A stretch of DNA of 64,000 nucleotides from Prevotella sp. (GTDB lineage: Bacteria; Bacteroidota; Bacteroidia; Bacteroidales; Bacteroidaceae). How positions within the stretch are numbered: position 1 is the first letter of the stretch; every line of letters starts with the position of its first letter. The notes beneath the pieces were generated by a model. That model was not told the DNA's origin. It worked only from the letters and a program-made list of their open reading frames with translations, and made no database searches. This document shows, in pieces, positions 6,573 through 64,000 of this stretch. The translations under genes and the position numbers were made by a program. The DNA is taken from assembly GCA_017847725.1 (NCBI GenBank), contig JAGAXW010000019.1:90350-154349 (forward strand), read 5' to 3'.

Positions 6573-6603
6573 GCTCCCCTCCCTTCAAGGGGAGGGGAGG
6601 GGC
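6573..6603. repeat. G-rich palindromic repeat, copy 1
   Basis: CTCCCCTCCCTT at 6574-6585 pairs with the G-rich arm after a one- or two-base loop, leaving one bulge. It belongs to the same family as the elements at 41466, 61570 and 63685. The remaining sequence to 6700 shows no gene. Confidence 0.75.
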
Positions 6604-53356: not shown

Positions 53357-54051
53357 ACAGGAATGACATCAAACTGATAGCTTTTGACGCCGACGACACG
53401 CTGTGGGACTGCCAGTCATGGTTCGACGACGTGGAACGGCGCTGCTGCGAACTGCTGGCGCCGTGGGCCACAGCCCATGAAGTGAGCGAGGGGCTCTTCG
53501 CCACGGAACGCCGCAACCTGCCGCTGACGGGCTACGGCACCAAGGCCTTCACCCTGTCGCTTATCGAGAATGCCGTTCGCGTCAGTCATGAGCAACTGAC
53601 GGGCGACATCGTGATGCGACTCATAGAACTGGGACGCGAACTGCTCAACTTCCCCACCACCCCGCTGCCGGAGGTAAGGCAGACGCTGGAGGCGCTGGCC
53701 GACATGCGCCGATACCAGCTGGTGGTATTCACCAAGGGAGAACTCATGGACCAGGAAGCCAAACTACACCGCTCTGGGCTGGAGACCTTCTTCTCGCACA
53801 TGGAAACGGTATCGAACAAGACCGAACATGAATACCGCCAACTGTGCCAAAACCTGGGGGTGGCACCGGAACAGACCGTCATGGTGGGCAACTCGTTCCG
53901 CTCGGATATCGCCCCGGCACTTGCAGCAGGGGCATGGGCCATCCACATTCCCTACCACGTGGTATGGGAACTGGAGAAGTCGGAAGAGTTCGACCACGAA
54001 CGCCTGCACAGAATCACCCACTTCGCCGAAATACTGGACGTGCTAACCTGA
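53353..54051 (+). CDS. HAD-superfamily phosphatase
   Basis: A 232-residue HAD hydrolase with motif I FDADDTLWD (nucleophile Asp at residues 11-13), motif II VVFTKG and motif III/IV VGNSFRSDIAPALAAG. Its C1 cap resembles the YjjG/phosphoglycolate-phosphatase-like group. It probably removes phosphate from a small metabolite in the cytoplasm; the substrate is unknown. I start at 53353, where ATG overlaps the previous stop; an upstream extension would run through the previous gene in another frame. Its end overlaps the convergent comEC gene by 38 bases. Confidence 0.88.
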   Translation: MNRNDIKLIAFDADDTLWDCQSWFDDVERRCCELLAPWATAHEVSEGLFATERRNLPLTGYGTKAFTLSLIENAVRVSHEQLTGDIVMRLIELGRELLNFPTTPLPEVRQTLEALADMRRYQLVVFTKGELMDQEAKLHRSGLETFFSHMETVSNKTEHEYRQLCQNLGVAPEQTVMVGNSFRSDIAPALAAGAWAIHIPYHVVWELEKSEEFDHERLHRITHFAEILDVLT

Positions 54052-55501
54052 CTATCGCCCAACAGACCACCATTATTATATATAATAGGTATAGGCGCGT
54101 CAGCGACAGGTTGATGCCCTCGATACTGCTGCCCGGCAAACGGCCGATGGCTGTCAACAGGGTATTCATCGCAGTGACGGTCAGCGACAGGGCACCGACC
54201 AGTAGCTGCTGCAGCGCAGAAGACCAAAACACGACAACGACGGACAACGACAAATACAGAACGACGTATGCCATCGGGACTACCACCATGTTGCTCAACA
54301 GGAAATAGGTGGAGAAACGGCCGAAATAGTAGGCAACCAACGGCGCTGTGCCTACCTGTGCCGACACGGACACGGCCACCATCCCACAGAGTGAGCGCCA
54401 CCACCTATGGCGCTGCCACACATGCAGCGGCAACCAGCCCATGAGCCGAGGGGTGAGGAGCAGGATGGACAGCACGGACATGAACGACAACTGGAATCCC
54501 ATATCGTAAATGGCATAAGGACGGACGGCAACCATCACGACGGCAGCGAACGACAGCGTGTTGACCGACATCCGTTCGCGATGGCCCAACGACAACAGGG
54601 CATAAAGCGATATCATCCATGCCGAGCGGGTGACACTGGGCGACATGCCCGTCAGCAGGGCAAAGGCCCAGATGGACAGCACCGTCAACAACTGGGTCGC
54701 CAGGCGCCAGCGCCCCCAACCGAAGAAGAACGACACGACGCCATAGAGTATCATCAGGTGCAGGCCACTCAGCGCCAACACGTGCGACGCCCCTACACGG
54801 GCATAGGTATCCTTCAGAGAACGGCTCATCTGCGAACGCTCGCCCAGCGTCATCGCAGCAACGACATGATAGACATCGCCATCCAGTCCCCACTGTCTGT
54901 AAGACTCCAGCAGGTGATGGCGCCAGCGCATCAGCCGCAGTCTAAGACGCTCTACACCGCTTAGCATCTGAAGACTAACAGTGCGCCACCGCCACTGATA
55001 CGGACGGACGAATGACTCGCCGACAAAATCGTGACACTGCATATAGCGCCGATAGTCGAAATGGCCGCTATGCCACTCCCCGGCGGGCCTGACACGAGAC
55101 TGAAGGACCAGTCCGTCGCCAATACGGATACGCCGGCTGCGCCCGTCGCGCACGATTCTGCACCGCAGTCTATGGTGCTGCGTCGTCACTACGTCGCATA
55201 CCACCCAACGGTCCTTGAGCACCGGCTCTTCCACCACGACAGCCTCCAACAGCAATGCCCTGTCAGGCCAGCTGACGCCCAACCGGTCACGCTCCTTGCT
55301 CCCCAACGCCACGCCCACCAAAAATGTGCAGCACCAGATGGCCACCGTCTGCCAACGGGGCCAACGCCCCAAAAGCACGGCCAGCCCGACAGATACGGCC
55401 AGCGCAACCAATGCCGGGCGGAACTCGCCCACAGCATCGCCAACAGCGACGCCCGCCAACAGGCTCATGGCTATCATCAACAGGGGAGCATGCATCTTCA
55501 T
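54014..55501 (-). CDS. comEC: ComEC/Rec2 family DNA-uptake channel
   Basis: A 495-residue inner-membrane protein. The N-terminus has three hydrophobic segments, then an OB-like DUF4131 region (RCRIVRDGRSRRIRIGDGLV), then the competence domain with several membrane helices. The conserved GASHVLALSGLHLMILYGVV and TGMSPSVTRSAWM motifs identify ComEC. The C-terminal metallo-beta-lactamase domain found in many ComEC proteins is absent. ComEC carries transforming single-stranded DNA into the cytoplasm. It is transcribed alone from a TATTTTTG -7 box just upstream, and comM, another competence gene, lies 5 kb away. Confidence 0.9.
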   Translation of the reverse strand: MKMHAPLLMIAMSLLAGVAVGDAVGEFRPALVALAVSVGLAVLLGRWPRWQTVAIWCCTFLVGVALGSKERDRLGVSWPDRALLLEAVVVEEPVLKDRWVVCDVVTTQHHRLRCRIVRDGRSRRIRIGDGLVLQSRVRPAGEWHSGHFDYRRYMQCHDFVGESFVRPYQWRWRTVSLQMLSGVERLRLRLMRWRHHLLESYRQWGLDGDVYHVVAAMTLGERSQMSRSLKDTYARVGASHVLALSGLHLMILYGVVSFFFGWGRWRLATQLLTVLSIWAFALLTGMSPSVTRSAWMISLYALLSLGHRERMSVNTLSFAAVVMVAVRPYAIYDMGFQLSFMSVLSILLLTPRLMGWLPLHVWQRHRWWRSLCGMVAVSVSAQVGTAPLVAYYFGRFSTYFLLSNMVVVPMAYVVLYLSLSVVVVFWSSALQQLLVGALSLTVTAMNTLLTAIGRLPGSSIEGINLSLTRLYLLYIIMVVCWAIVRLARPVFRRSG

Positions 55502-55506
55502 GACAA

Positions 55507-55514
55507 CAAAAATA
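55507..55514 (-). promoter_or_regulatory. -7 promoter box for comEC
   Basis: The minus strand reads TATTTTTG, 5 bases before the comEC ATG, so a nearly leaderless transcript is implied. Confidence 0.4.
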
Positions 55515-55622
55515 GCAAAATTTTACCAGCAACAGATGAACATGGCAACCGTTTTTGTGTTAAATAAATATAAATCTTAATCCTGGCTCACTTGTTACGC
55601 ATCAGAATCAGAAGAAAAGCCG

Positions 55623-55630
55623 TACCTTTG
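55623..55630 (+). promoter_or_regulatory. -7 promoter box of the rplM-rpsI operon
   Basis: TACCTTTG sits about 200 bases before the rplM ATG. The wider word GTACCTTTGCA is shared with the promoter at 21889. No TTTG at the usual -33 position. Confidence 0.65.
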
Positions 55631-55635
55631 CAGTC

Positions 55636-55829
55636 CGATTATTGGGGAGAGACTTAGAATCCCCGTGAACCATGTGTAAATAGTGGTGTCTTTGGCCGGG
55701 CACCGCGGTTTGTGAATCAGGGTTCAGTGCACAAAGTTAGACTACTTGCGGAGAGTTAGACCTCTGCTGGTGGTTATCGTGCGCATAATAGTGAAAAAAA
55801 ATGTTTTTTAGTAGTAAAATTAAAAAGAA
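55636..55829 (+). promoter_or_regulatory. Structured leader of the rplM-rpsI transcript (candidate r-protein leader)
   Basis: The leader of about 195 nt has GGGGA (55644-55648) pairing with TCCCC (55660-55664). It then shows GGTGTC...GGGCACC and a GCGGAG/CTCTGC hairpin, and it carries two AGTTAGAC words close together. A run of A and T precedes the ATG. Autogenous control by L13 through a leader RNA is known in other bacteria; that this leader does so is inference. Confidence 0.5.
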
Positions 55830-56297
55830 ATGAACACTTTAAGTTACAAGACTGTTTCCGTCAGCAAGGAAGCTGCTCGCGAGCAAAAAGAATGGGTGGT
55901 TATCGACGCTACCGACCAGGTAGTAGGCCGCCTCGCTTCGAAAGTAGCTAAGATTATCCGCGGAAAGTACAAGCCCACCTTCACTCCTAACCAGGACTGT
56001 GGCGACAACGTTATCATCATCAACGCCAAGAAGGTGGTATTCACTGGTAAGAAAGAGACCGACAAGGTTTACACCCGCTACACTGGCTATCCCGGTGGAC
56101 AGCGCTTCAACACTCCCGCCGAACTCCGCAAGAAGCCGTTTGGCGTTGAGCGCATCCTGAAGCACGCCGTAAAGGGCATGCTGCCCAAAGGTCCCCTTGG
56201 CCGCGCCCTGCTCAACAACCTCTTCGTCTACGAGGGAACCGAGCATCCCCATGAGGCTCAGAAGCCCAAGGCTATCGATATCAACCAGTATAAATAA
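55830..56297 (+). CDS. rplM: 50S ribosomal protein L13 (uL13)
   Basis: A 155-residue ribosomal protein. Conserved text includes WVVIDATDQVVGRLASKVAK near the start, GDNVIIINAKKVVFTGKK in the middle and KPFGVERILKHAVKGMLPKG near the end, all typical of L13. It binds 23S rRNA early in assembly. It is followed after 18 bases by rpsI, the standard L13-S9 pair, and preceded by a long structured leader. Confidence 0.97.
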   Translation: MNTLSYKTVSVSKEAAREQKEWVVIDATDQVVGRLASKVAKIIRGKYKPTFTPNQDCGDNVIIINAKKVVFTGKKETDKVYTRYTGYPGGQRFNTPAELRKKPFGVERILKHAVKGMLPKGPLGRALLNNLFVYEGTEHPHEAQKPKAIDINQYK

Positions 56298-56315
56298 TTA
56301 AAATAAGAATACAAG

Positions 56316-56702
56316 ATGGAATACATCAATGCAATAGGTCGTCGCAAGAGCTCTGTAGCTCGCGTTTATCTGTCAGAAGGTACTGGCAAGATTACGATCA
56401 ACAAGAAAGACTTGGAAGTATACTTCCCCTCTGCCATCCTGCAGTACGTGGTAAAGCAGCCGCTCCAGCTGCTGGAGGTGGCTGAGAAATACGACATCAA
56501 GGCCAACCTCGACGGCGGCGGCTTCACCGGACAGAGCCAGGCTCTGCGTCTGGCCATCGCCCGCGCACTGGTAAAAATCAATGCCGAGGACAAGAAGAAC
56601 CTGAAGGACCACGGTTTCCTGACTCGCGATGCCCGTGAGGTTGAGCGTAAGAAGCCGGGACGTCCCAAGGCACGTCGTCGCTTCCAGTTCAGTAAGCGTT
56701 AA
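56316..56702 (+). CDS. rpsI: 30S ribosomal protein S9 (uS9)
   Basis: A 128-residue protein. The start MEYINAIGRRKSSVARVYLS and the C-terminus RPKARRRFQFSKR, whose tail reaches the decoding site and contacts tRNA, are diagnostic of S9. It is co-transcribed with rplM. A 200-base spacer then separates it from rpsB. Confidence 0.97.
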   Translation: MEYINAIGRRKSSVARVYLSEGTGKITINKKDLEVYFPSAILQYVVKQPLQLLEVAEKYDIKANLDGGGFTGQSQALRLAIARALVKINAEDKKNLKDHGFLTRDAREVERKKPGRPKARRRFQFSKR

Positions 56703-56904
56703 TATTGGCTGTTGGCTTTTAGCCTATGGCTATCGGCCAATACCAATACTGAACAGTTTAGTATCTAAACCACTACGACCCGTCAGCTAACGGCCAAAGG
56801 CCCATCGCTAACAGCTACGAAGTGGCTGATTCTGGACAAGGAGACCGCAAGTTCGAGTCTTCAGAATTAAAAAGAAAGTAAACAACAAAAAAAAGAAAAT
56901 CAAA
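56703..56904 (+). promoter_or_regulatory. rpsI-rpsB spacer: inverted repeats and possible rpsB leader
   Basis: TATTGGC (56703-56709) pairs with GCCAATA (56736-56742) directly after the rpsI stop. Between and after lie CTGTTGGC- and GCTAACAG-like words of the same kind as the heptamers at 4237. Closer to rpsB, ATTCTG (56829-56834) pairs with CAGAAT (56862-56867). A purine-rich tract precedes the rpsB ATG. I see no separate TAnnTTTG promoter, so read-through from rplM is likely. Confidence 0.4.
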
Positions 56905-57738
56905 ATGGCAAGAACAAATTTTGACCAATTGCTGCAGGCTGGCTGCCACTTCGGCCACCTGAAGCGTAAGTGGAACCCTGCAATGGCTCCCTACATCTAT
57001 ACCGAGCGTAACGGTATTCACATCATCGACCTGCATAAGACGGTAGCTAAGATTGACGAGGCTGCCGACGCCCTCAAGCAGATTGCCAAGAGCGGCAAGA
57101 AAGTGCTGTTCGTCGCTACTAAAAAACAGACTAAGGAAATCATCGCCGAGAAGGCTCAGAGCGTTGGTATGCCTTACGTCATTGAGCGCTGGCCGGGTGG
57201 CATGCTGACCAACTTCCCGACTATCCGCAAGGCCGTCAAGAAAATGGCGAACATCGACAAACTGATGCAGGATGGTACCTATAGCAACCTGTCAAAGCGC
57301 GAACTGCTGCAGGTGACTCGCCAGCGCGCCAAGCTGGAGAAGAACCTTGGCTCTATCGCCGACCTGACCCGTCTGCCCAGCGCCCTGTTCGTGGTCGACG
57401 TGCTGAAGGAGCAGATTGCCGTTCGCGAGGCTAACCGCCTGGGTATCCCCGTATTCGGTATCGTTGACACCAACTCTGACCCCAAGAACATCGACTTCAT
57501 CATCCCCGCCAACGACGACGCCAAGGACAGCGTAGAGGTCATCCTCTCTGCTTGCTGCGCCGCCATCAACGAGGGTATCGAGGAGCGCAAGGTAGAGAAG
57601 GCCGACGAGAAGGCTGCCGACGCTCAGGCCGAGGCTGAAGCTGAAGAGGGCAAGGCTAAGCGCGCCGCACGCAAGCCCCGCAAGGCTGCTGCCGAGGAGG
57701 CTCCCGTAGCTGAAGAGGCTGCTCCCGCTGCTGAGTAA
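56905..57738 (+). CDS. rpsB: 30S ribosomal protein S2 (uS2)
   Basis: A 277-residue protein. Residues 1 to about 225 are a standard S2: LLQAGCHFGHLKRKWNPAMA near the start, IERWPGGMLTNFPTIRKAVK in the middle and GIPVFGIVDTNSDP later. Residues from about 225 form a Lys/Ala/Glu-rich tail ending VAEEAAPAAE, an extension common in Bacteroidota S2 and probably flexible. It is followed after 39 bases by tsf, the usual arrangement. Confidence 0.97.
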   Translation: MARTNFDQLLQAGCHFGHLKRKWNPAMAPYIYTERNGIHIIDLHKTVAKIDEAADALKQIAKSGKKVLFVATKKQTKEIIAEKAQSVGMPYVIERWPGGMLTNFPTIRKAVKKMANIDKLMQDGTYSNLSKRELLQVTRQRAKLEKNLGSIADLTRLPSALFVVDVLKEQIAVREANRLGIPVFGIVDTNSDPKNIDFIIPANDDAKDSVEVILSACCAAINEGIEERKVEKADEKAADAQAEAEAEEGKAKRAARKPRKAAAEEAPVAEEAAPAAE

Positions 57739-57777
57739 TAAAAAGTAAATAGTAAAAGGTAAAATAACGAAAAGATT

Positions 57778-58773
57778 ATGGCTATTTCAATAGACGATAT
57801 CAAGAAGCTCCGCGCCATGACCGGTGCCGGTCTCGCCGACGTAAAGAAGGCACTGACCGAGGCCGAGGGCGACTTCGACAAGGCCAAGGAACTGCTGCGT
57901 GAGCGCGGACTGGCTATCGCTGCCAAGCGTAGCGATCGTGAGACATCCAATGGTTGCGTACTCGTAAAGGCTGTCGACGGCTTTGCCGCAATGATTGCCC
58001 TGAAGTGCGAGACCGACTTCGTAGCAAACGGTGCCGACTTCATTGCACTCACCCAGAGCATCCTTGACGCTGCCATCGCTAACAAGTGCAAGGACATCGA
58101 GGCTGTCAAGGCACTGCTCATCAACGGCCAGACTGCCCAGGAGGCTGTCACACAGCGTTCTGGTATCACCGGCGAGAAGATGGAGCTCGACGGCTACCTC
58201 GTGCTCGAGGGTGATAACATCGAGGTCTACAACCACATGGGTAAGAACACCCTGTGCACCATGGTACAGCTCAACAAGAATGCTGCCGAAGTAGGTCACA
58301 AGCTGGCCATGCAGGTGGCTGCCATGAAGCCCGTAGCCCTGAACGCAGAGAGCGTCGACCAGAAAATCCTCGACGAGGAGTACAAGACGGCTGTCGAGAA
58401 GACCAAGCTCGAGCAGGTTGAGAAGTACGTGGAGATGAAGCTCAAGAAGGCTGGCATCAACCCCAACCTCGTAGACTCTGAAGACCACATCGAGTCGAAC
58501 ATGGCCAAGGGCTGGCTCACCAAGGAGCAGGCCGACGAGGCTCGCCAACTCATCGAGACCGCCAAGGCCGAGGGTGAGGCTCAGCTGAAGATGCCTATGA
58601 TCGAGAACATCGCCAAGGGTCGTGTCAACAAGTTCCTGAAGGAGAACTGCCTGGTAGACCAGGAGTTCCAGTTCGGCGACGGCGACAAGGCTACTGTCAG
58701 CCAGTGGCTCGCCCAGCAGGACAAGGAGCTGAAGATTGTTGACTTCAAGCGCTTCACGCTGGTTGCTGAGTAA
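57778..58773 (+). CDS. tsf: Elongation factor Ts
   Basis: A 331-residue guanine-nucleotide exchange factor for EF-Tu. The N-terminal UBA-like domain (DDIKKLRAMTGAGLADVKKA) is conserved, and the exchange core has ALKCETDFVANGADF. The length fits the longer EF-Ts of Bacteroidota. It is the last gene of the ribosomal cluster; a strong terminator follows 25 bases after the stop. Confidence 0.96.
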   Translation: MAISIDDIKKLRAMTGAGLADVKKALTEAEGDFDKAKELLRERGLAIAAKRSDRETSNGCVLVKAVDGFAAMIALKCETDFVANGADFIALTQSILDAAIANKCKDIEAVKALLINGQTAQEAVTQRSGITGEKMELDGYLVLEGDNIEVYNHMGKNTLCTMVQLNKNAAEVGHKLAMQVAAMKPVALNAESVDQKILDEEYKTAVEKTKLEQVEKYVEMKLKKAGINPNLVDSEDHIESNMAKGWLTKEQADEARQLIETAKAEGEAQLKMPMIENIAKGRVNKFLKENCLVDQEFQFGDGDKATVSQWLAQQDKELKIVDFKRFTLVAE

Positions 58774-58797
58774 TCAGACACACATACCTATAAATAA

Positions 58798-58829
58798 AAA
58801 TGCCCGCACATCAGCTGCGGGCATTTTTT
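58798..58829 (+). terminator. Bidirectional terminator after tsf
   Basis: TGCCCGC (58801-58807) pairs with GCGGGCA (58817-58823), flanked by five As and seven Ts. It can stop tsf transcription and also the convergent esterase transcript. Confidence 0.92.
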
Positions 58830-58835
58830 TCTACC

Positions 58836-60143
58836 TTATTTCAGGCGTTTCCTTACCCACTCCATCTGACCGCGGTCTGTAGCGTCGCTGGTCCAATGCT
58901 CGTTGATGGGCGTAAGCAGGCTCTCTTTCTCACACTTCAGCACATTCCATACGGCATACGATGTGGTGGGCGAACAGGTGTTGTCGTTATAGCCCCAGGT
59001 CATATATACCGGTGTATCAATGTGGCGTGCAAAATTCACCACATCATAGTACGGCAGCGTCTGCATGCATGCGGCCGAATAGGCGCCACTCTCTTTCGTA
59101 AAGTGCGGATAGCCGCTTGTCAGGCCCGCAGAGCCTGCCGCCATATCGCTCAGTGCGGGATGGTTGGCGACACAATGGGTGATGCGCTTGTCGAGTGCCG
59201 TGGCAATAAGCGCCAAGGCACCGCCCTGGCTGCCGCCAGCTACAATGACATTACGCCCGTCCCACTCGGGCATAGCCGTCAGTACATCGATGCAGCGTAC
59301 CAGTCCGAGATATACATGCTTCATATAATACTGTTTGCGGTCTTCCAGATTCTGGCGAAGGTATCCATTGTCGCGGTTGTTGAAGGCGGCATTAATCTCG
59401 GCCCACTGCTGGTCGGTCATCGTAGGATTCAGACCGTGAATGTCTATCGCCATCCTGATAAAGCCATTCTCGGGCCAGAAACGACGCGCCATTCCGTCCT
59501 TGATAGTCTTGACGCCGGCTCCCGGCGGTGTCAGCACGACTGGACAACTGCCTTTCTTGGCTCCATGGGGCACCAGCAGATAAGCATAGAACGAATGTTT
59601 CTGACGGTCAAGATCTATCTTCATGCGATAGCAGTCGACACGCTCGTTGGACATCTCGGCGACGTACTCCTTTGTATAGTGTACGGGCATCTTCGCAGCC
59701 TCCTTCAGTTCTTGCTGCCAGAAGGTCCAGAAGTCTTTCGGCTCCTGGGTAAACGGCTGGATGCGGTCTGCCGAGAAGCCCACCTTTACATGGTGCTCAT
59801 ACGTCTTCCCATCCAGCTGCATCTTTAGGCGCAGGTCACGGAAGCATGGCTTCTTGGCCGTACCCATCTGTATCTTGGCACGACCGCCCTTCAGCGTCAC
59901 CTTACCTTTTGTGTCTGAGGCCAGCAGGTCGGTGCCCACCTCCCACTCTACCACACCGTCGCGTGGAATACCATACTTGTAGAACTGCACCTCTACCGTT
60001 GCCTTCTCACCAACCTCATAAAGCCAGTCGGCATGGTCAGGAACGGCCACCCACAGGTAGTCACTGCGGTAAGGATAATTCTCCACAGCCACCGCTGCCA
60101 ACATCGTCGGCAACAGCAGCATCAACATCACTAATCGTTTCAT
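58836..60143 (-). CDS. Exported CE7-type acetyl esterase (acetylxylan esterase family)
   Basis: A 435-residue protein with signal peptide MKRLVMLMLLLPTMLAAVA. An N-terminal beta-sandwich (VWVAVPDHADWLYEVG-like text up to about residue 125) precedes the alpha/beta-hydrolase domain of the AXE1/CE7 family. The nucleophile is in AGGSQGGALAL, the acid in TWGYNDNTCS and the catalytic His in INEHWTSD. These enzymes remove acetyl groups from xylooligosaccharides and antibiotics; in this location it probably deacetylates plant glycans in the periplasm. I start at 60143; 60149 is an alternative. A TATCTTTG -7 box lies 65 bases upstream. Confidence 0.88.
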   Translation of the reverse strand: MKRLVMLMLLLPTMLAAVAVENYPYRSDYLWVAVPDHADWLYEVGEKATVEVQFYKYGIPRDGVVEWEVGTDLLASDTKGKVTLKGGRAKIQMGTAKKPCFRDLRLKMQLDGKTYEHHVKVGFSADRIQPFTQEPKDFWTFWQQELKEAAKMPVHYTKEYVAEMSNERVDCYRMKIDLDRQKHSFYAYLLVPHGAKKGSCPVVLTPPGAGVKTIKDGMARRFWPENGFIRMAIDIHGLNPTMTDQQWAEINAAFNNRDNGYLRQNLEDRKQYYMKHVYLGLVRCIDVLTAMPEWDGRNVIVAGGSQGGALALIATALDKRITHCVANHPALSDMAAGSAGLTSGYPHFTKESGAYSAACMQTLPYYDVVNFARHIDTPVYMTWGYNDNTCSPTTSYAVWNVLKCEKESLLTPINEHWTSDATDRGQMEWVRKRLK

Positions 60144-60207
60144 ATACATCGTTTTAGTAGTTTATTCCACCTTTACTGGAGTCTGGCATAAATTGTACCA
60201 ACGATTG

Positions 60208-60215
60208 CAAAGATA
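60208..60215 (-). promoter_or_regulatory. -7 promoter box for the CE7 esterase
   Basis: The minus strand reads TATCTTTG, about 65 bases before the ATG. No clear -33 TTTG. Confidence 0.6.
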
Positions 60216-60258
60216 CAAATATTTCCCAAATAATAATCCTTAATTCTCATTTTATTCG

Positions 60259-60266
60259 TATCTTTG
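60259..60266 (+). promoter_or_regulatory. -7 promoter box for comM
   Basis: The plus strand reads TATCTTTG, 20 bases before the comM ATG. It diverges from the esterase promoter 43 bases away. Confidence 0.6.
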
Positions 60267-60286
60267 TACAAAATCTAATATTATAT

Positions 60287-61858
60287 ATGCTGGTAAAAAC
60301 CTATTGTGCCGCAGTCAACGGGCTCGAAGTCACCACAGTCACCGCCGAAGTCAGCATGACCCGTGGTGTACAGTTTCACCTGACTGGTCTGGCAGACACT
60401 GCTGTCAAGGAAAGCTACGACCGCATTCGCGCCGCCTTGCAGAACAACGGATTCAAGATGCCCACCATGGACACCACCGTCAACCTCTCGCCTGCCGACC
60501 TCAAGAAAGAAGGTTCCGGCTACGACCTTCCGGTAGCCATCGGCATACTGGCCGCCAACGGCAAGGTGGAGAGTGAGCGACTGGCCGACTACATGATGGT
60601 AGGTGAACTGAGCCTCGACGGACACCTACAACCCATACGTGGCGCACTCCCCATCGCCATACGTGCTCGAAAGGAGAAGTTCAAAGGGCTCATCGTACCC
60701 CAGCAGAACATCCGCGAAGCTGCCGTCGTCAACCAGTTGGAAGTCTATGGCATGGACTCTCTGATGGATGTCATCAAATTTATAAATGGCAGTACCGACT
60801 ATGAGCCTACCCACATCGACACCCGCAAGGAGTTCTACGAACAGCAGAACCACTTCGAACTGGACTTCAGCGACGTCCGCGGACAGGAGAGCGTCAAGCG
60901 CGCATTAGAGGTTGCTGCCGCTGGCGGACATAACCTCATCATGATAGGGCCGCCGGGTAGTGGTAAGTCGATGCTGGCCAAGCGCCTGCCCAGCATTCTG
61001 CCCCCACTGTCGTTGGCAGAAAGCCTTGAGACAACGCAGATTCACAGCGTGGCCGGCAAGCTGAGCCGTGACACCAGCCTCATCAGTCAGCGTCCATTCC
61101 GCGCTCCCCACCACACCATCTCTCAGGTAGCCCTTGTAGGTGGTGGTCAAAACCCACAGCCAGGCGAGATCTCGCTGGCGCACAACGGTGTTCTCTTCCT
61201 CGACGAAATGCCGGAGCTGTCGCGTAGCGTCCTCGAGGTACTACGCCAACCACTGGAAGACCGCCACATCACCATCAGTCGTGCCAAGTACAACGTGGAG
61301 TATCCCTGTTCCTTCATGCTTGTGGCTTCAATGAACCCCTGCCCTTGCGGCTACTATGGCGACCCCACCCACCACTGCGTCTGCACCCCCGGACAGATTC
61401 AGCGCTATATGAACAAAATCAGCGGTCCCCTACTCGACCGCATCGACATCCACTGCGAAATCCAGGCCGTCCCCTTCGCCCAGCTCTCGCAAATGAAGCC
61501 CGGCGAGCCCTCGGCCGCCATCCGCGAGCGAGTCATCAAGGCCCGCAACATCCAGACCGAGCGCTTCAGCTCCCTCCCTACAGGGGAGGGCGGGGGGAGG
61601 GGCCGCATCCACTGCAACGCCCAAATGACCGAGCGCATGCTTCACGAATACGCCGAGCCCGACGCCCAAAGCCTCGATATGCTCCGCATGGCCATGGAGC
61701 GTCTCAAGCTCTCCGCCCGTGCCTACAGCCGCATCTTGAAGGTCGCCCGCACCATCGCCGACCTTTCCGGCTCAGAAAAAGTCCAGTCCATGCACATCGC
61801 CGAAGCCATCGGCTATCGTAACCTCGACCGTGGCGACTGGGCAGAGCGGGGAATATAA
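60287..61858 (+). CDS. comM: ComM/YifB-family AAA+ ATPase carrying an expressed repeat insertion
   Basis: A 523-residue AAA+ ATPase of the Mg-chelatase-like YifB/ComM family, a helicase that promotes branch migration during natural transformation. Domains in order: N-terminal Lon-like fold (residues 1-170), Walker A GPPGSGKSMLAKRLP near residue 223, Walker B VLFLDEMPEL, a Cys-rich ASMNPCPCGYYGD zinc segment, and the C-terminal Mg-chelatase domain. Between RNIQTERF and IHCNAQM, where homologues have a few residues, lies SSLPTGEGGGRGR, encoded by a G-rich palindromic repeat read in frame. A truncated second copy of the 3' end lies at 63554. With comEC nearby, natural competence is likely. Confidence 0.93.
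   Translation: MLVKTYCAAVNGLEVTTVTAEVSMTRGVQFHLTGLADTAVKESYDRIRAALQNNGFKMPTMDTTVNLSPADLKKEGSGYDLPVAIGILAANGKVESERLADYMMVGELSLDGHLQPIRGALPIAIRARKEKFKGLIVPQQNIREAAVVNQLEVYGMDSLMDVIKFINGSTDYEPTHIDTRKEFYEQQNHFELDFSDVRGQESVKRALEVAAAGGHNLIMIGPPGSGKSMLAKRLPSILPPLSLAESLETTQIHSVAGKLSRDTSLISQRPFRAPHHTISQVALVGGGQNPQPGEISLAHNGVLFLDEMPELSRSVLEVLRQPLEDRHITISRAKYNVEYPCSFMLVASMNPCPCGYYGDPTHHCVCTPGQIQRYMNKISGPLLDRIDIHCEIQAVPFAQLSQMKPGEPSAAIRERVIKARNIQTERFSSLPTGEGGGRGRIHCNAQMTERMLHEYAEPDAQSLDMLRMAMERLKLSARAYSRILKVARTIADLSGSEKVQSMHIAEAIGYRNLDRGDWAERGI
61570..61602 (+). repeat. G-rich palindromic repeat, copy 3, in frame inside comM
   Basis: CTCCCTCCC (61570-61578) and the G-rich arm after TACAG form the same hairpin type as copies 1 and 2. 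Here it is translated into Gly- and Ser-rich residues of ComM. Confidence 0.85.
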
Positions 61859-61869
61859 TAATTAACTTA

Positions 61870-62451
61870 ATGATAATAATTATGAAGAAAGATGAACAGC
61901 CAGATGCTTCTAACCAAGTAAAGAGAGAGAAGATTACTACTTCTATCGCTTTTCTCCTTTTGCTCATAGTCGGTTCTATTGCTATCGTATATATCTATAC
62001 CAAAGACACAATGGGTGAAAACCTCAATGAAACCATTTCGACAGAACAAAAGGAATCTTCTATTGAGGTAAATGCAGATTGGATTGAAAAAGAAACGATA
62101 ACAACCGATTTTATAAATTATAATACCATATATAACTTTAGCGGTCATAGAATCTATGTAGGAGATAATAATTACACACCCAAGAAATGGTATCATTACA
62201 AGTACAGCGAAACAAGGTTCTCAAAAACAAAAGTTACAATATCTGTTGGTGGGAGTACATATACAAGTAGAATAGTCTCGGCAAGCTTTACAATGAATCG
62301 AGCCATGTTTGGAGATAAAAAAGCTATGATTAAAACAAAAGATGGTTTTGTCGAATTTTGGGAAATGAGAGACGGAAGTTTCTCTTTATATGGGAAACAT
62401 AAAAATCTAACCTTCATATTTAATGACTATTTCAGCCGCAATGAAGATTGA
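61870..62451 (+). CDS. Single-pass membrane protein of unknown function in an AT-rich cassette
   Basis: A 193-residue protein with one hydrophobic helix at about residues 26-46 (ITTSIAFLLLLIVGSIAIVY) and a soluble C-terminal domain of about 145 residues (strand-rich; VTISVGGSTYTSRIVSASF). Its DNA is clearly AT-rich and its codon use differs from the flanking GC-rich genes, a sign of recent acquisition. The start could be 61870 or 61882. It lies 11 bases after comM and 60 bases before the RhuM-family gene. I recognise no family. Confidence 0.65.
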   Translation: MIIIMKKDEQPDASNQVKREKITTSIAFLLLLIVGSIAIVYIYTKDTMGENLNETISTEQKESSIEVNADWIEKETITTDFINYNTIYNFSGHRIYVGDNNYTPKKWYHYKYSETRFSKTKVTISVGGSTYTSRIVSASFTMNRAMFGDKKAMIKTKDGFVEFWEMRDGSFSLYGKHKNLTFIFNDYFSRNED

Positions 62452-62511
62452 GAATTATGGGACGGATACCTGATATTTTTATAAGTTTTAAGGGGATTAT
62501 ATAACTAAACT

Positions 62512-63516
62512 ATGGACGAGAACAAAGGAAATATTATTATCTATCAGTCGGAGGACGGTGTCGTTCGACTAGATGTGCGATTGGAAGATAAGACTGTTTG
62601 GCTGACCATTGACCAAATGTCGGAACTGTTTGGAAAATCGCGCTCAACAATCAATGAGCACATCCTTAATATATATGAGGAAGGAGAGTTGGAAGAAGAT
62701 GTGACGAAGAGAAAAATCGGAATTTCCGATTTTTCTACCAAGCCAACCAACTTCTATAATTTGGACGTGATTATTTCTGTTGGCTATCGGGTAAAATCAA
62801 TACAAGGTACTCGCTTCCGTCAATGGGCTACAGAACGGCTGCATGAATATATTGTGAAAGGCTTTGCATTGGACGATGAGCGATTGAAGAACCTCGGCGG
62901 TGGCAGTTACTGGAAAGAACTCCTTGACCGTATCCGCGACATTCGTTCCTCAGAGAAAGTGCTGTATCGGCAGGTGCTTGACCTCTATGCCACAGCCGTT
63001 GACTACGACCCACGCTCAGACACCTCACGGCTATTCTTCAAGATTGTGCAGAACAAGCTCCACTATGCTGCCCACGGACATACAGCGGCAGAAGTCATCT
63101 ATGAGCGGGCTGATGCCGACAAGCCTTTTATGGGATTGACCACATTCAAGGGAGAACTACCTTGTCTCAACGATGTGAAGATTGCCAAGAACTACCTGTC
63201 GGCTGACGAGTTAAAGATTTTGAATAACCTCGTATCCGGATATTTCGACTTTGCAGAAATCCAGGCATTAAAGCACCGACCTATGTATATGGAAGACTAT
63301 GTTCGCCAACTTGACAATAATATCGTGTCTATAGGTGAAGAACTACTAACCGATGGCGGTACTATCAGTCACGAAGAGGCAATGGAGAAGGCTGTAGCTG
63401 AATACCGCAAGTTTCAAGTTAAGACACTCTCGTCTGTTGAGCAAGCCTATCTGGAGAGCATTAAGGGTATTGAAAAGAAAGTAAAGCGCAAGGGGAAAAA
63501 CGATGCTAACAAGTAG
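62512..63516 (+). CDS. rhuM: RhuM family protein
   Basis: A 334-residue protein of the RhuM family, named after the Salmonella pathogenicity-island protein. The N-terminal third holds the DNA-binding-like segment WLTIDQMSELFGKSRSTINE, then TNFYNLDVIISVGYRVKSIQ and GTRFRQWATERLHEYIVKGF, which are the most conserved RhuM motifs and resemble the KilA/Bro-type phage antirepressor region. The biochemical function is unknown; homologues often lie on genomic islands and near restriction or toxin systems. Here it sits in an AT-rich insert next to comM, bounded downstream by a duplicated comM end. It is complete. Confidence 0.88.
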   Translation: MDENKGNIIIYQSEDGVVRLDVRLEDKTVWLTIDQMSELFGKSRSTINEHILNIYEEGELEEDVTKRKIGISDFSTKPTNFYNLDVIISVGYRVKSIQGTRFRQWATERLHEYIVKGFALDDERLKNLGGGSYWKELLDRIRDIRSSEKVLYRQVLDLYATAVDYDPRSDTSRLFFKIVQNKLHYAAHGHTAAEVIYERADADKPFMGLTTFKGELPCLNDVKIAKNYLSADELKILNNLVSGYFDFAEIQALKHRPMYMEDYVRQLDNNIVSIGEELLTDGGTISHEEAMEKAVAEYRKFQVKTLSSVEQAYLESIKGIEKKVKRKGKNDANK

Positions 63517-63553
63517 TACCTGTATAGGATCTTCGGCGTACAAAACCGCCGCA

Positions 63554-63832
63554 CGGATAGACATCCACTGCGAAATCCAGGCCGTGCCCTTCGCCCAGCT
63601 CTCGCAAATGAAGCCCGGCGAGCCGTCGGCCGTCATCCGCGAGCGAGTCATCAAGGCCCGCAACATCCAGACCGAGCGCTTCAGCTCCCTCCCTACAGGG
63701 GAGGGCGGGGGGAGGGGCCACATCCTCAAAGTAGCCCACACCATCGCCGAGGCCATCGGATATCGCAACCTGGATAGAGGCGACTGGGCTGAGCGAGCAT
63801 CTTCCGGAATAGCCGTGGGGACAGATACCTGA
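63554..63832 (+). pseudogene. Degenerate duplicate of the comM 3' end
   Basis: Bases 63554-63719 match comM 61439-61604 with only five differences over 166 bases, including the G-rich repeat (copy 4, about 63685-63717). Two internal jumps then skip 126 and 42 bases of comM, each at short direct repeats (GCCGCATC and CATCGCCGA), and the comM end resumes through GYRNLDRGDWAER. The frame stays open but the AAA+ core is absent and the end has diverged, so it cannot be a working ATPase. The open frame is continuous with bases after the RhuM gene only by chance. Confidence 0.88.
63685..63717 (+). repeat. G-rich palindromic repeat, copy 4, inside the comM fragment
   Basis: The same bases as copy 3 (CTCCCTCCC then TACAG then the G-rich arm), inherited with the duplicated comM segment. 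Confidence 0.85.
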
Positions 63833-64000
63833 GTCATAGCAGCCGTCATACCCAAGTACCTCTTACCTTTGCACCAGATTATAGATAATGTTCTAAATGT
63901 AAGATGTTAATCATCGTATAAATTTAGTACATACGGCTATGATTTTGTAGCTTTGCTAGAGATTATGGCCGTGGGGAGTGAGGAGGCAAGTGCCTAGGTA
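63833..64000 (+). other. Right-edge non-coding stretch with a possible outward promoter
   Basis: No gene is visible. TAGCTTTG at 63948-63955 matches TAnnTTTG on the plus strand and may serve a gene beyond the window. A short ATG frame at 63965 ends after ten codons. Confidence 0.35.

What the first reader, a model, noticed from the sequence alone, without database searches (positions are those of the whole stretch)
61439..63832. AT-rich RhuM cassette inserted at comM with duplication of the comM 3' end
Seen: an intact comM, then an AT-rich stretch with two genes, then a second comM 3' segment 97 percent identical over 166 bases to 61439-61604. Known: comM is a recognised insertion hotspot (AbaR-type islands of Acinetobacter lie in it). 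Inferred: the cassette arrived by an event that restored the comM end upstream and left the old end downstream, where it decayed. No integrase is visible in the cassette, so it may use a partner in trans or be the residue of a larger island.
Basis: partly seen in the sequence, partly recalled or inferred. Interest (0 to 1): 0.7.

Follow-up and report, generated by a model that had tools for sequence, protein, structure and literature searches.

The report
Gene cassettes riding on comM's end
In a number of Prevotella-like bacteria, exchangeable genes, often candidate phage-defence genes, sit just behind the DNA-recombination gene comM, each followed by a partial copy of comM's own end, and no complete integrase was found beside the arrays checked, so the copied gene end may be what lets them move.

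Summary
Window 61439-61604 recurs at 63554-63719 (161 of 166 bases) behind a 40% G+C cassette with an orphan gene and a RhuM gene (PADLOC candidate PDC-S05). It is one case of a recurrent structure. By hand count, 56 of 398 sampled genomes of the genus carry extra partial copies of comM, up to three behind one comM; in 37 they lie on the comM contig, same strand, downstream. A control gene (tsf) gave two rows in 9 of 398 genomes, never more. Besides the window's, 37 copies start at ComM codons 370-385. Cargo differs (RhuM, Bro-N, ATPases and others) and mostly lies on the comM strand, starting shortly after the comM stop. Among 126 array proteins scanned one integrase remnant was seen, in G318. 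Near-identical cargo sits in different species, its similarity mostly ending at the comM-derived flanks, and intact comM genes exchange about their last 140 codons between species. My best reading is a cassette array spread by homologous recombination in the comM 3' segment; a site-specific recombinase, now lost or acting in trans, is the main rival.

The parts
60287..61858 (+). comM, intact, 523 aa
   Evidence: Pfam Mg_chelatase, ChlI, Mg_chelatase_C
61439..61858 (+). last ~140 codons of comM: the segment that is copied
   Evidence: 37 partial copies in other genomes start at codons 370-385 (hand count); repeat
61870..62451 (+). orphan cargo gene, 193 aa, membrane segment near the N-terminus (read by eye)
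   Evidence: ORF; no Pfam family over its cut-off; in 1 of 299 genus genomes, its own
62512..63516 (+). RhuM-family cargo gene, 334 aa, PADLOC phage-defence candidate PDC-S05
   Evidence: PF13310 E 1.2e-102; PDC-S05 E 2.5e-156
63503..63553 (+). short start peptide (junction family D) whose ATG overlaps the RhuM stop and reads in frame into the comM copy
   Evidence: like ends in L071, L078 and, in another genus, L174 (by eye)
63554..63795 (+). partial comM copy (codons 385-441, ~483-491, ~506-522) with two in-frame deletions
61572..61604 (+). G-rich palindromic insert inside comM, in frame; repeated in the copy at 63687-63719
   Evidence: a 29-base pattern of it is found at only these two places in the genome

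Best explanation
It is one unit of a comM-anchored cassette array. A unit is a gene without a promoter of its own (inferred), usually on the comM strand and starting a few tens of bases after the comM stop, often followed by a short start peptide and a copy of up to ~140 codons of the comM end. Shown: units recur in tandem, cargo differs, near-identical cargo occurs in different species, no complete integrase was seen among the array proteins scanned, and about the last 140 codons of intact comM genes are exchanged between species. Inferred: the comM 3' segment serves as the homology arm. A unit (as a circle, or as incoming linear DNA) recombines with the resident comM end by homologous recombination; this gives the resident a hybrid but working comM, puts the cargo behind it under the comM promoter, and leaves a second comM end that is the arm for the next exchange or for excision. 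The RhuM unit here most likely adds a phage-defence gene (a candidate only).
For: Genus survey: 364 of 398 genomes match the comM 3' part; 64 give two or more rows. Re-search of 63 of these 64 (all but G000): 55 have a true extra partial copy (hand count); control tsf: two rows in 9 of 398. Start codons 370-385 in 37 copies. Three extra copies behind one comM in G369 (complete), G310, G023 and G704 of another genus. First cargo gene on the comM strand in 34 of 34 loci counted, 7-60 nt after the stop in 26; 112 + against 20 - ORFs, some in loci where comM itself was not held. Cargo: RhuM 20, Bro-N 6, AAA_14 4 of 109 proteins. Shared cargo: L071/L073 95% over 10.6 kb, 98-100% in most end windows, falling to 58% within ~60 bases of the junction; L105/L123 98-100% but for a differing stretch of ~300 bases, ends sharp; L065/L066 95-100% and L065/L077 85-100%, both beginning in the last ~25 nt of comM. 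PF00589: six matches in G000, none on the comM contig; nearest in complete G369 about 89 kb from comM; none on the comM contig of G403; PF00239 none near in five genomes. Intact comM: excess of locally similar pairs in 40-codon windows only from codon 381 on; left tract edges concentrate at codons 360-400.
Against: An integrase remnant (102 aa, C-terminal part of PF00589) lies in the G318 array, so an integrase may once have acted there. The window's contig ends just after the copy. Some tract ends are sharper than scattered crossovers in a 420-base arm would give. Of 16 copies whose own intact comM was in the set, only 6 are most like it; 10 are not. The left-edge estimate depends on how the tract is defined: with definitions from codon 320 or 260 a third to a half of the mass lies at 200-280. 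Junction peptides fall into several families. No circular intermediate was seen. Transformation of these bacteria is not shown.
Confidence: 0.47

Rival explanations
1. Site-specific insertion: a recombinase, lost from most arrays or acting in trans, inserts cassettes at comM codon ~382; the cassette carries its own comM 3' end, which repairs comM, and the old end is left downstream.
For: 37 copies start at codons 370-385; junction families recur with different cargo; several tract ends coincide with the junction; left edges of exchange in intact comM concentrate at codons 360-400; the family A pattern has 16 exact hits in 84,980 genomes, 15 of them at comM codon 382 (ten of the 15 contigs have the length of contigs already in my panel); an integrase remnant lies in the G318 array.
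Against: No integrase on the comM contig of G000 and G403, nearest ~89 kb off in G369, none but the remnant among 126 array proteins scanned (five weak families not shown); no common core across junction families A-E beyond the comM-like part (by eye); other copies start at codons 469-506 or 265-322; in W both copies carry the same insert and are 97% alike, and in L105 the two comM tails agree at 65 of 66 bases, which one conservative crossover with foreign DNA does not give without later conversion.
Confidence: 0.3
2. Old duplication plus cargo exchange: the comM end was duplicated once in an ancestor, perhaps through the short repeat LDRID/LDRGD at codons 382 and 513; since then only the cargo between the two comM ends is swapped by homologous recombination in the flanks, as in a minimal mobile element.
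For: Junction peptides A, B and E look distantly alike (by eye); shared cargo sits between differing comM flanks; 10 of 16 copies are not most like the own comM; copies are often decayed.
Against: L120, L131 and L136 have no second copy although the gene after comM is the one behind the array in L073, and 300 of the 364 genomes with a match give one row only, so many losses are needed; copies 96-98% like the own comM (L087, L089) look young, unless converted.
Confidence: 0.13
3. The comM-derived open frame is itself functional: a membrane-anchored or otherwise tagged ComM C-terminal domain, translationally coupled to RhuM or Bro-N, acts with it (for example as a partner or regulator).
For: In 27 of 34 tested copies an in-frame ATG lies upstream, and 27 of 34 stay open to the comM tail; the large deletions in W, L066, L068, L069, L075, L077, L078 and L101 are multiples of three; all eight family B junctions follow RhuM.
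Against: Over all 49 indels, 28 are multiples of three and 21 are not; L065, L071, L086 and L096 have frame-breaking ones; some copies are reduced to 16-30 codons; the deletions are partly shared by descent; open frames are expected in young copies of a coding segment.
Confidence: 0.08
4. Assembly artefact or mixed strains in a metagenome bin.
For: The window's contig ends about 200 bases after the copy and several other contigs end at such copies.
Against: The same structure is in complete or near-complete genomes (G369 one contig, G209 two contigs) and in assemblies from several named sources.
Confidence: 0.02

Closest known systems
Tn6022/AbaR-type and Tsy elements in comM (TnsF targeting)
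   Same: Insertion at comM
   Different: They target the Walker B region of comM with their own transposition proteins (passages of PMC10293859); here comM stays intact, the window's cassette has no such gene, and the last ~140 codons are copied
Tandem islands at the ssrA 3' end of Dehalococcoides, and accretion of IMEs/CIMEs
   Same: Tandem units behind one gene, bounded by a copy of its 3' end; not all units carry an integrase (passages of PMC3146451)
   Different: There the repeat is 20 bp and sixteen islands carry a serine-recombinase module; here the repeat is up to ~420 bp and one integrase remnant is all that was seen
Integron cassette arrays (recalled)
   Same: Same-strand cassettes, often of one gene, in tandem behind one gene
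   Different: No integron integrase was found near; attC-like folding was not tested; units carry part of a core gene
Minimal mobile elements (recalled)
   Same: Variable cargo between core-gene flanks, exchange by homologous recombination
   Different: Here one flank is a copy of the other, so units can stack

Membership tests
AbaR/Tn6022-type comM island | Insertion interrupts comM at the Walker B region | tested here: not met
   comM is complete, the copy starts at codon 385
AbaR/Tn6022-type comM island | Own transposition genes | tested here: not met
   The cassette holds only the orphan ORF, RhuM and the comM copy
IME/CIME accretion island | Direct repeats of a gene end at both sides | tested here: met
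   61439-61610/63554-63725 and 61795-61848/63742-63795
IME/CIME accretion island | Related element with an integrase at the same site | tested here: inconclusive
   One 102-aa integrase remnant in the G318 array, no other among 126 array proteins scanned; ORFs under 80 aa or mostly comM-derived were not scanned
Integron | Integron integrase next to the array | tested here: not met
   No PF00589 match on the comM contig of G000 or G403, nearest ~89 kb from comM in G369; the G000 contig ends just after the copy
Integron | attC-type folded recombination site | not tested
   Junctions were only aligned; no folding was run
Minimal mobile element | Cargo exchange between core flanks by homologous recombination | tested here: inconclusive
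   Tract ends fit exchange, but several lie very near the junctions
RhuM / PDC-S05 | Profile match over most of the protein | tested here: met
   PF13310 residues 76-305; PDC-S05 residues 1-326
RhuM / PDC-S05 | Anti-phage activity | not testable with these tools
   PDC read as phage-defence candidate; function was not tested

The most novel reading that the evidence does not exclude
An integron-like gene-capture array that needs no integrase: the C-terminal part of ComM, a recombination helicase, is carried by cassettes as a mobile homology arm, so that comM-bearing relatives can take up, stack, express and lose single defence genes through their own homologous recombination (perhaps natural transformation, in which ComM itself acts), with comM's own end being swapped between species as a by-product.
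Probability: 0.38. Interest if true: 0.78.

Novelty: new variant of a known kind. Interest (0 to 1): 0.6.

Why it matters
If right, it shows how a stock of exchangeable, promoter-fed defence genes can exist without integrase, transposase or att site, using only a piece of a core gene. It would explain one way in which RhuM and Bro-N candidates spread in Prevotella, and it gives a testable link between the recombination helicase ComM and the genes that hitch-hike on its end. It also gives PDC-S05 and PDC-S13 a recurrent genomic address that can be mined for further candidates.

Tried and rejected
A phage or plasmid vehicle: the cassette DNA matches 15 plasmid and 11 phage records at 60-80% identity; no place covers 80% of it, the longest I saw covers 43%, and the rows shown lie over the RhuM part. 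The family A junction pattern has no hit in IMG/VR. A known RNA element or tRNA at the site: only the L13 leader at 55644-55718 (54000-64000 searched) and no tRNA in the window. A dif-like Xer site in the junctions: weighed by eye on the alignments, no consistent match, not computed. A single fixed crossover at codon 382: changepoints without site weighting were scattered; with site weighting they concentrate at 360-400, but two alternative tract definitions move the mass, so I do not claim a fixed point. Reading the 64 multi-row genomes as 64 arrays: eight were dropped after re-search (G073 and G390 diverged full-length second copies, G290 two full copies, G095, G119, G233, G297 no second copy, G189 contig break), leaving 56 with the window. 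In one search three intact genes lacked the motif used for splitting and were left out; at most four pairs per genome were used. Of 130 distinct array ORFs (80 aa or more), 107 plus two window proteins went into; searches then rescanned 101 of the 130, so that 126 of 130 were scanned in all (left out: three ORFs of L064 and one near-duplicate). One search showed 25 of 71 families and 25 of 30. Literature: nine searches ran; among the titles and abstract openings shown (capped lists) I saw none on comM 3' copies with cassettes. Of three papers I saw passages only (PMC13356809, PMC10293859, PMC3146451), of the rest the listing only. Subscription papers are mostly not held and preprints not at all, so absence from print is not claimed.
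Full report
What is there. comM (60287-61858) is intact. After 11 bases follows an orphan gene (61870-62451), then a RhuM gene (62512-63516), then a partial copy of the comM end (63554-63795). The copy of 61439-61604 matches at 161 of 166 bases; the only other repeat of comM in the window at E 1e-3 is the last block, 61795-61848 copied at 63742-63795 at 85%. The cassette has 40% G+C against 59% for comM. The copy lacks 42 and 14 inner codons, both in frame. It reads from an ATG at 63503 that overlaps the RhuM stop, through a short peptide, into ComM codon 385. The window ends at the end of its contig, about 200 bases after the copy.

It is one of many. The last 142 codons of comM match in 364 of 398 sampled genomes of the genus, and 64 genomes give two or more rows. 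I searched 63 of those 64 again with the whole protein, all but the window's own. By hand count 55 have a true extra partial copy; with the window's genome that is 56 of 398. In 36 of the 55 a copy is on the comM contig, same strand, downstream (37 with the window); in others it is on another contig, often at its end. G369, a complete genome, has three copies behind comM and a short one 1.1 Mb away. As a control, the last 142 codons of tsf match in 352 of 398 genomes, with two rows in nine and never more (hand count). In other genera of the family 14 of 279 genomes give two or more raw rows; only one of them, G704, was looked at, and it has three copies and a RhuM cassette. Of 24 genomes from other families of the order, none showed an extra copy of the 3' part (read by eye).

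Where the copies begin. Thirty-seven copies begin at codons 370-385 (hand count, the window's not counted). Upstream of them the DNA falls into a few families that recur: A in 14, B in 8, C in 9, D in 3 and E in 2 of 39 junctions, 3 unassigned (sorted by eye). Family A mostly encodes a hydrophobic start peptide ending in RGYII-x-DRIDIH and occurs with Bro-N, RhuM and other cargo. A degenerate pattern for it has 16 exact hits in the collection of 84,980 genomes; 15 lie at comM codon 382 and one (Desulfoluna) has no comM nearby. Six of the 15 titles name sheep, goat or roe deer gut; ten of the 15 contigs have the length of contigs already in my panel and are not independent. The pattern has no hit in IMG/VR. 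Other copies start at codons 469-506, and a few at 265-322.

Cargo. In 34 of 34 loci counted with an intact comM and cargo, the first cargo gene of 80 aa or more is on the comM strand; in 26 it starts 7-60 bases after the comM stop. Over all such ORFs before the last copy the count is 112 on the comM strand, 20 on the other, some of them in loci where comM itself was not held. Of 109 array proteins scanned (107 of the 130 listed, plus two of the window), 20 match RhuM, 6 Bro-N and 4 AAA_14. A finer rescan brought out Fic, DUF3791/DUF3990, glycosidases, kinases, a WYL protein and others. RhuM matches PADLOC PDC-S05 and the Bro-N protein PDC-S13. PDC-S05 is named among the highly abundant systems in rumen genomes (passage of PMC13356809). 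RhuM genes also occur away from comM in these genomes, so the array is one of several homes. The orphan gene of the window was found in none of the other 298 genus genomes searched.

Integrase. PF00589 matches: six in G000, none on the comM contig; five in complete G369, the nearest about 89 kb from comM; six in G403, none on the comM contig. PF00239: none in G000, G403 and G310; one each in G369 and G162, about 1 Mb off or on another contig. Among 126 of the 130 array ORFs scanned for Pfam families, one has an integrase match: L072 10115-10420 in G318, 102 aa, covering only profile positions 111-169 of 172, between comM and its first copy. So at least one array holds the remnant of an integrase. 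ORFs under 80 aa were not scanned, and the G000 contig ends just after the copy.

How units move. Shared cargo gives the edges. L071 (G382) and L073 (G162) share 10.6 kb at 95%, with 98-100% in most end windows; on the right the similarity falls from 90% to 58% within about 60 bases of the junction. L105/L123 share cargo at 98-100%, but for a differing stretch of about 300 bases, with sharp ends at the last ~10 bases of comM and at the end of the gene. L065/L066 agree at 95-100% from the last ~25 bases of comM, sinking to 88% before the junction and 71-83% after it; L065/L077 agree at 85-100% from the last ~15 bases of comM to the junction, then at 36-56%. L042/L073 agree at 100% from codon ~477 to past the stop and at 75-100% further on. 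So cargo moves between species, and the comM-derived flanks mostly do not go along, or are changed afterwards. In 6 of 16 copies whose own intact comM was in the set, the own comM end is the best match (W, L079, L081, L084, L087, L089); in 10 it is not; L107 matches its own genome's comM on another contig at 92%.

Exchange in intact comM. Among 83 intact genes (3403 pairs), local excess similarity appears in 40-codon windows from codon 381 onwards: skew +0.20 to +0.39 there, -0.21 to +0.12 before. With site-specific conservation taken into account, 68% of the left-edge mass of 50 pairs lies at codons 360-399. When the tract is defined as 440-523, 50% still lies there; when defined from 320 or 260, a third to a half lies at 200-280; N-terminal control tracts are diffuse. 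I take this as support for exchange of about the copied segment, not as proof of a fixed point.

Empty site. In L073 the array lies between comM and a gene that in L120, L131 and L136 is next to a single-ended comM. L133 keeps a short comM remnant 24 bases after the comM stop and no cassette (by eye).

Reading. The account I prefer is that the copied comM segment is the homology arm by which units enter, stack and leave, with comM kept whole and the cargo fed by its promoter. The promoter, the intermediate and the route of DNA entry are inferred. ComM as a helicase of natural transformation is known (abstract opening of PMC11612176); that it acts here is a guess. A recombinase, lost or in trans, is the main rival, and the G318 remnant keeps it alive.

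Noticed in passing
61572-61604 and 63687-63719; comM of L073, L105, L119, L124, L136: A G-rich palindromic insert lies in frame in comM, adding about eight codons in some species and absent in others (L118, L120); shorter forms of the palindrome occur at 6577 and 41467 of the window.
   Followed up: partly
L072 10115-10420 (G318): A 102-aa remnant of a tyrosine recombinase lies between comM and its first copy.
   Followed up: partly
window end; contigs of G163, G270, G276, G291, G216: Contigs often end at or just behind a comM copy, as expected if arrays vary between strains in the sample.
   Followed up: no
L064 4191-4289 (G369 at 2.44 Mb): A copy of the last ~33 codons of comM lies more than 1 Mb from comM in a complete genome.
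   Followed up: no
L067 near 6982 and 9015, in the orientation of comM: The comM tails of two copies in G181 are broken by the same short palindrome-like insert.
   Followed up: no
L097 1978-2958 and L098 2027-3007: A DUF3791-DUF3990 gene pair, perhaps a toxin-antitoxin pair (recalled), sits as cargo behind comM in two related species with only 18 codons of comM copied.
   Followed up: no
54014-55501: A ComEC-like gene (named by eye, no family search) lies about 5 kb from comM.
   Followed up: no
G000 contig C6 4486-4704 (L002): A second RhuM-family gene lies elsewhere in the genome and matches only the first 72 profile positions.
   Followed up: no
comM codons 382 and 513: The gene holds a short repeated coding pattern (LDRID and LDRGD) near the two places where copies begin and cassettes start.
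   Followed up: no
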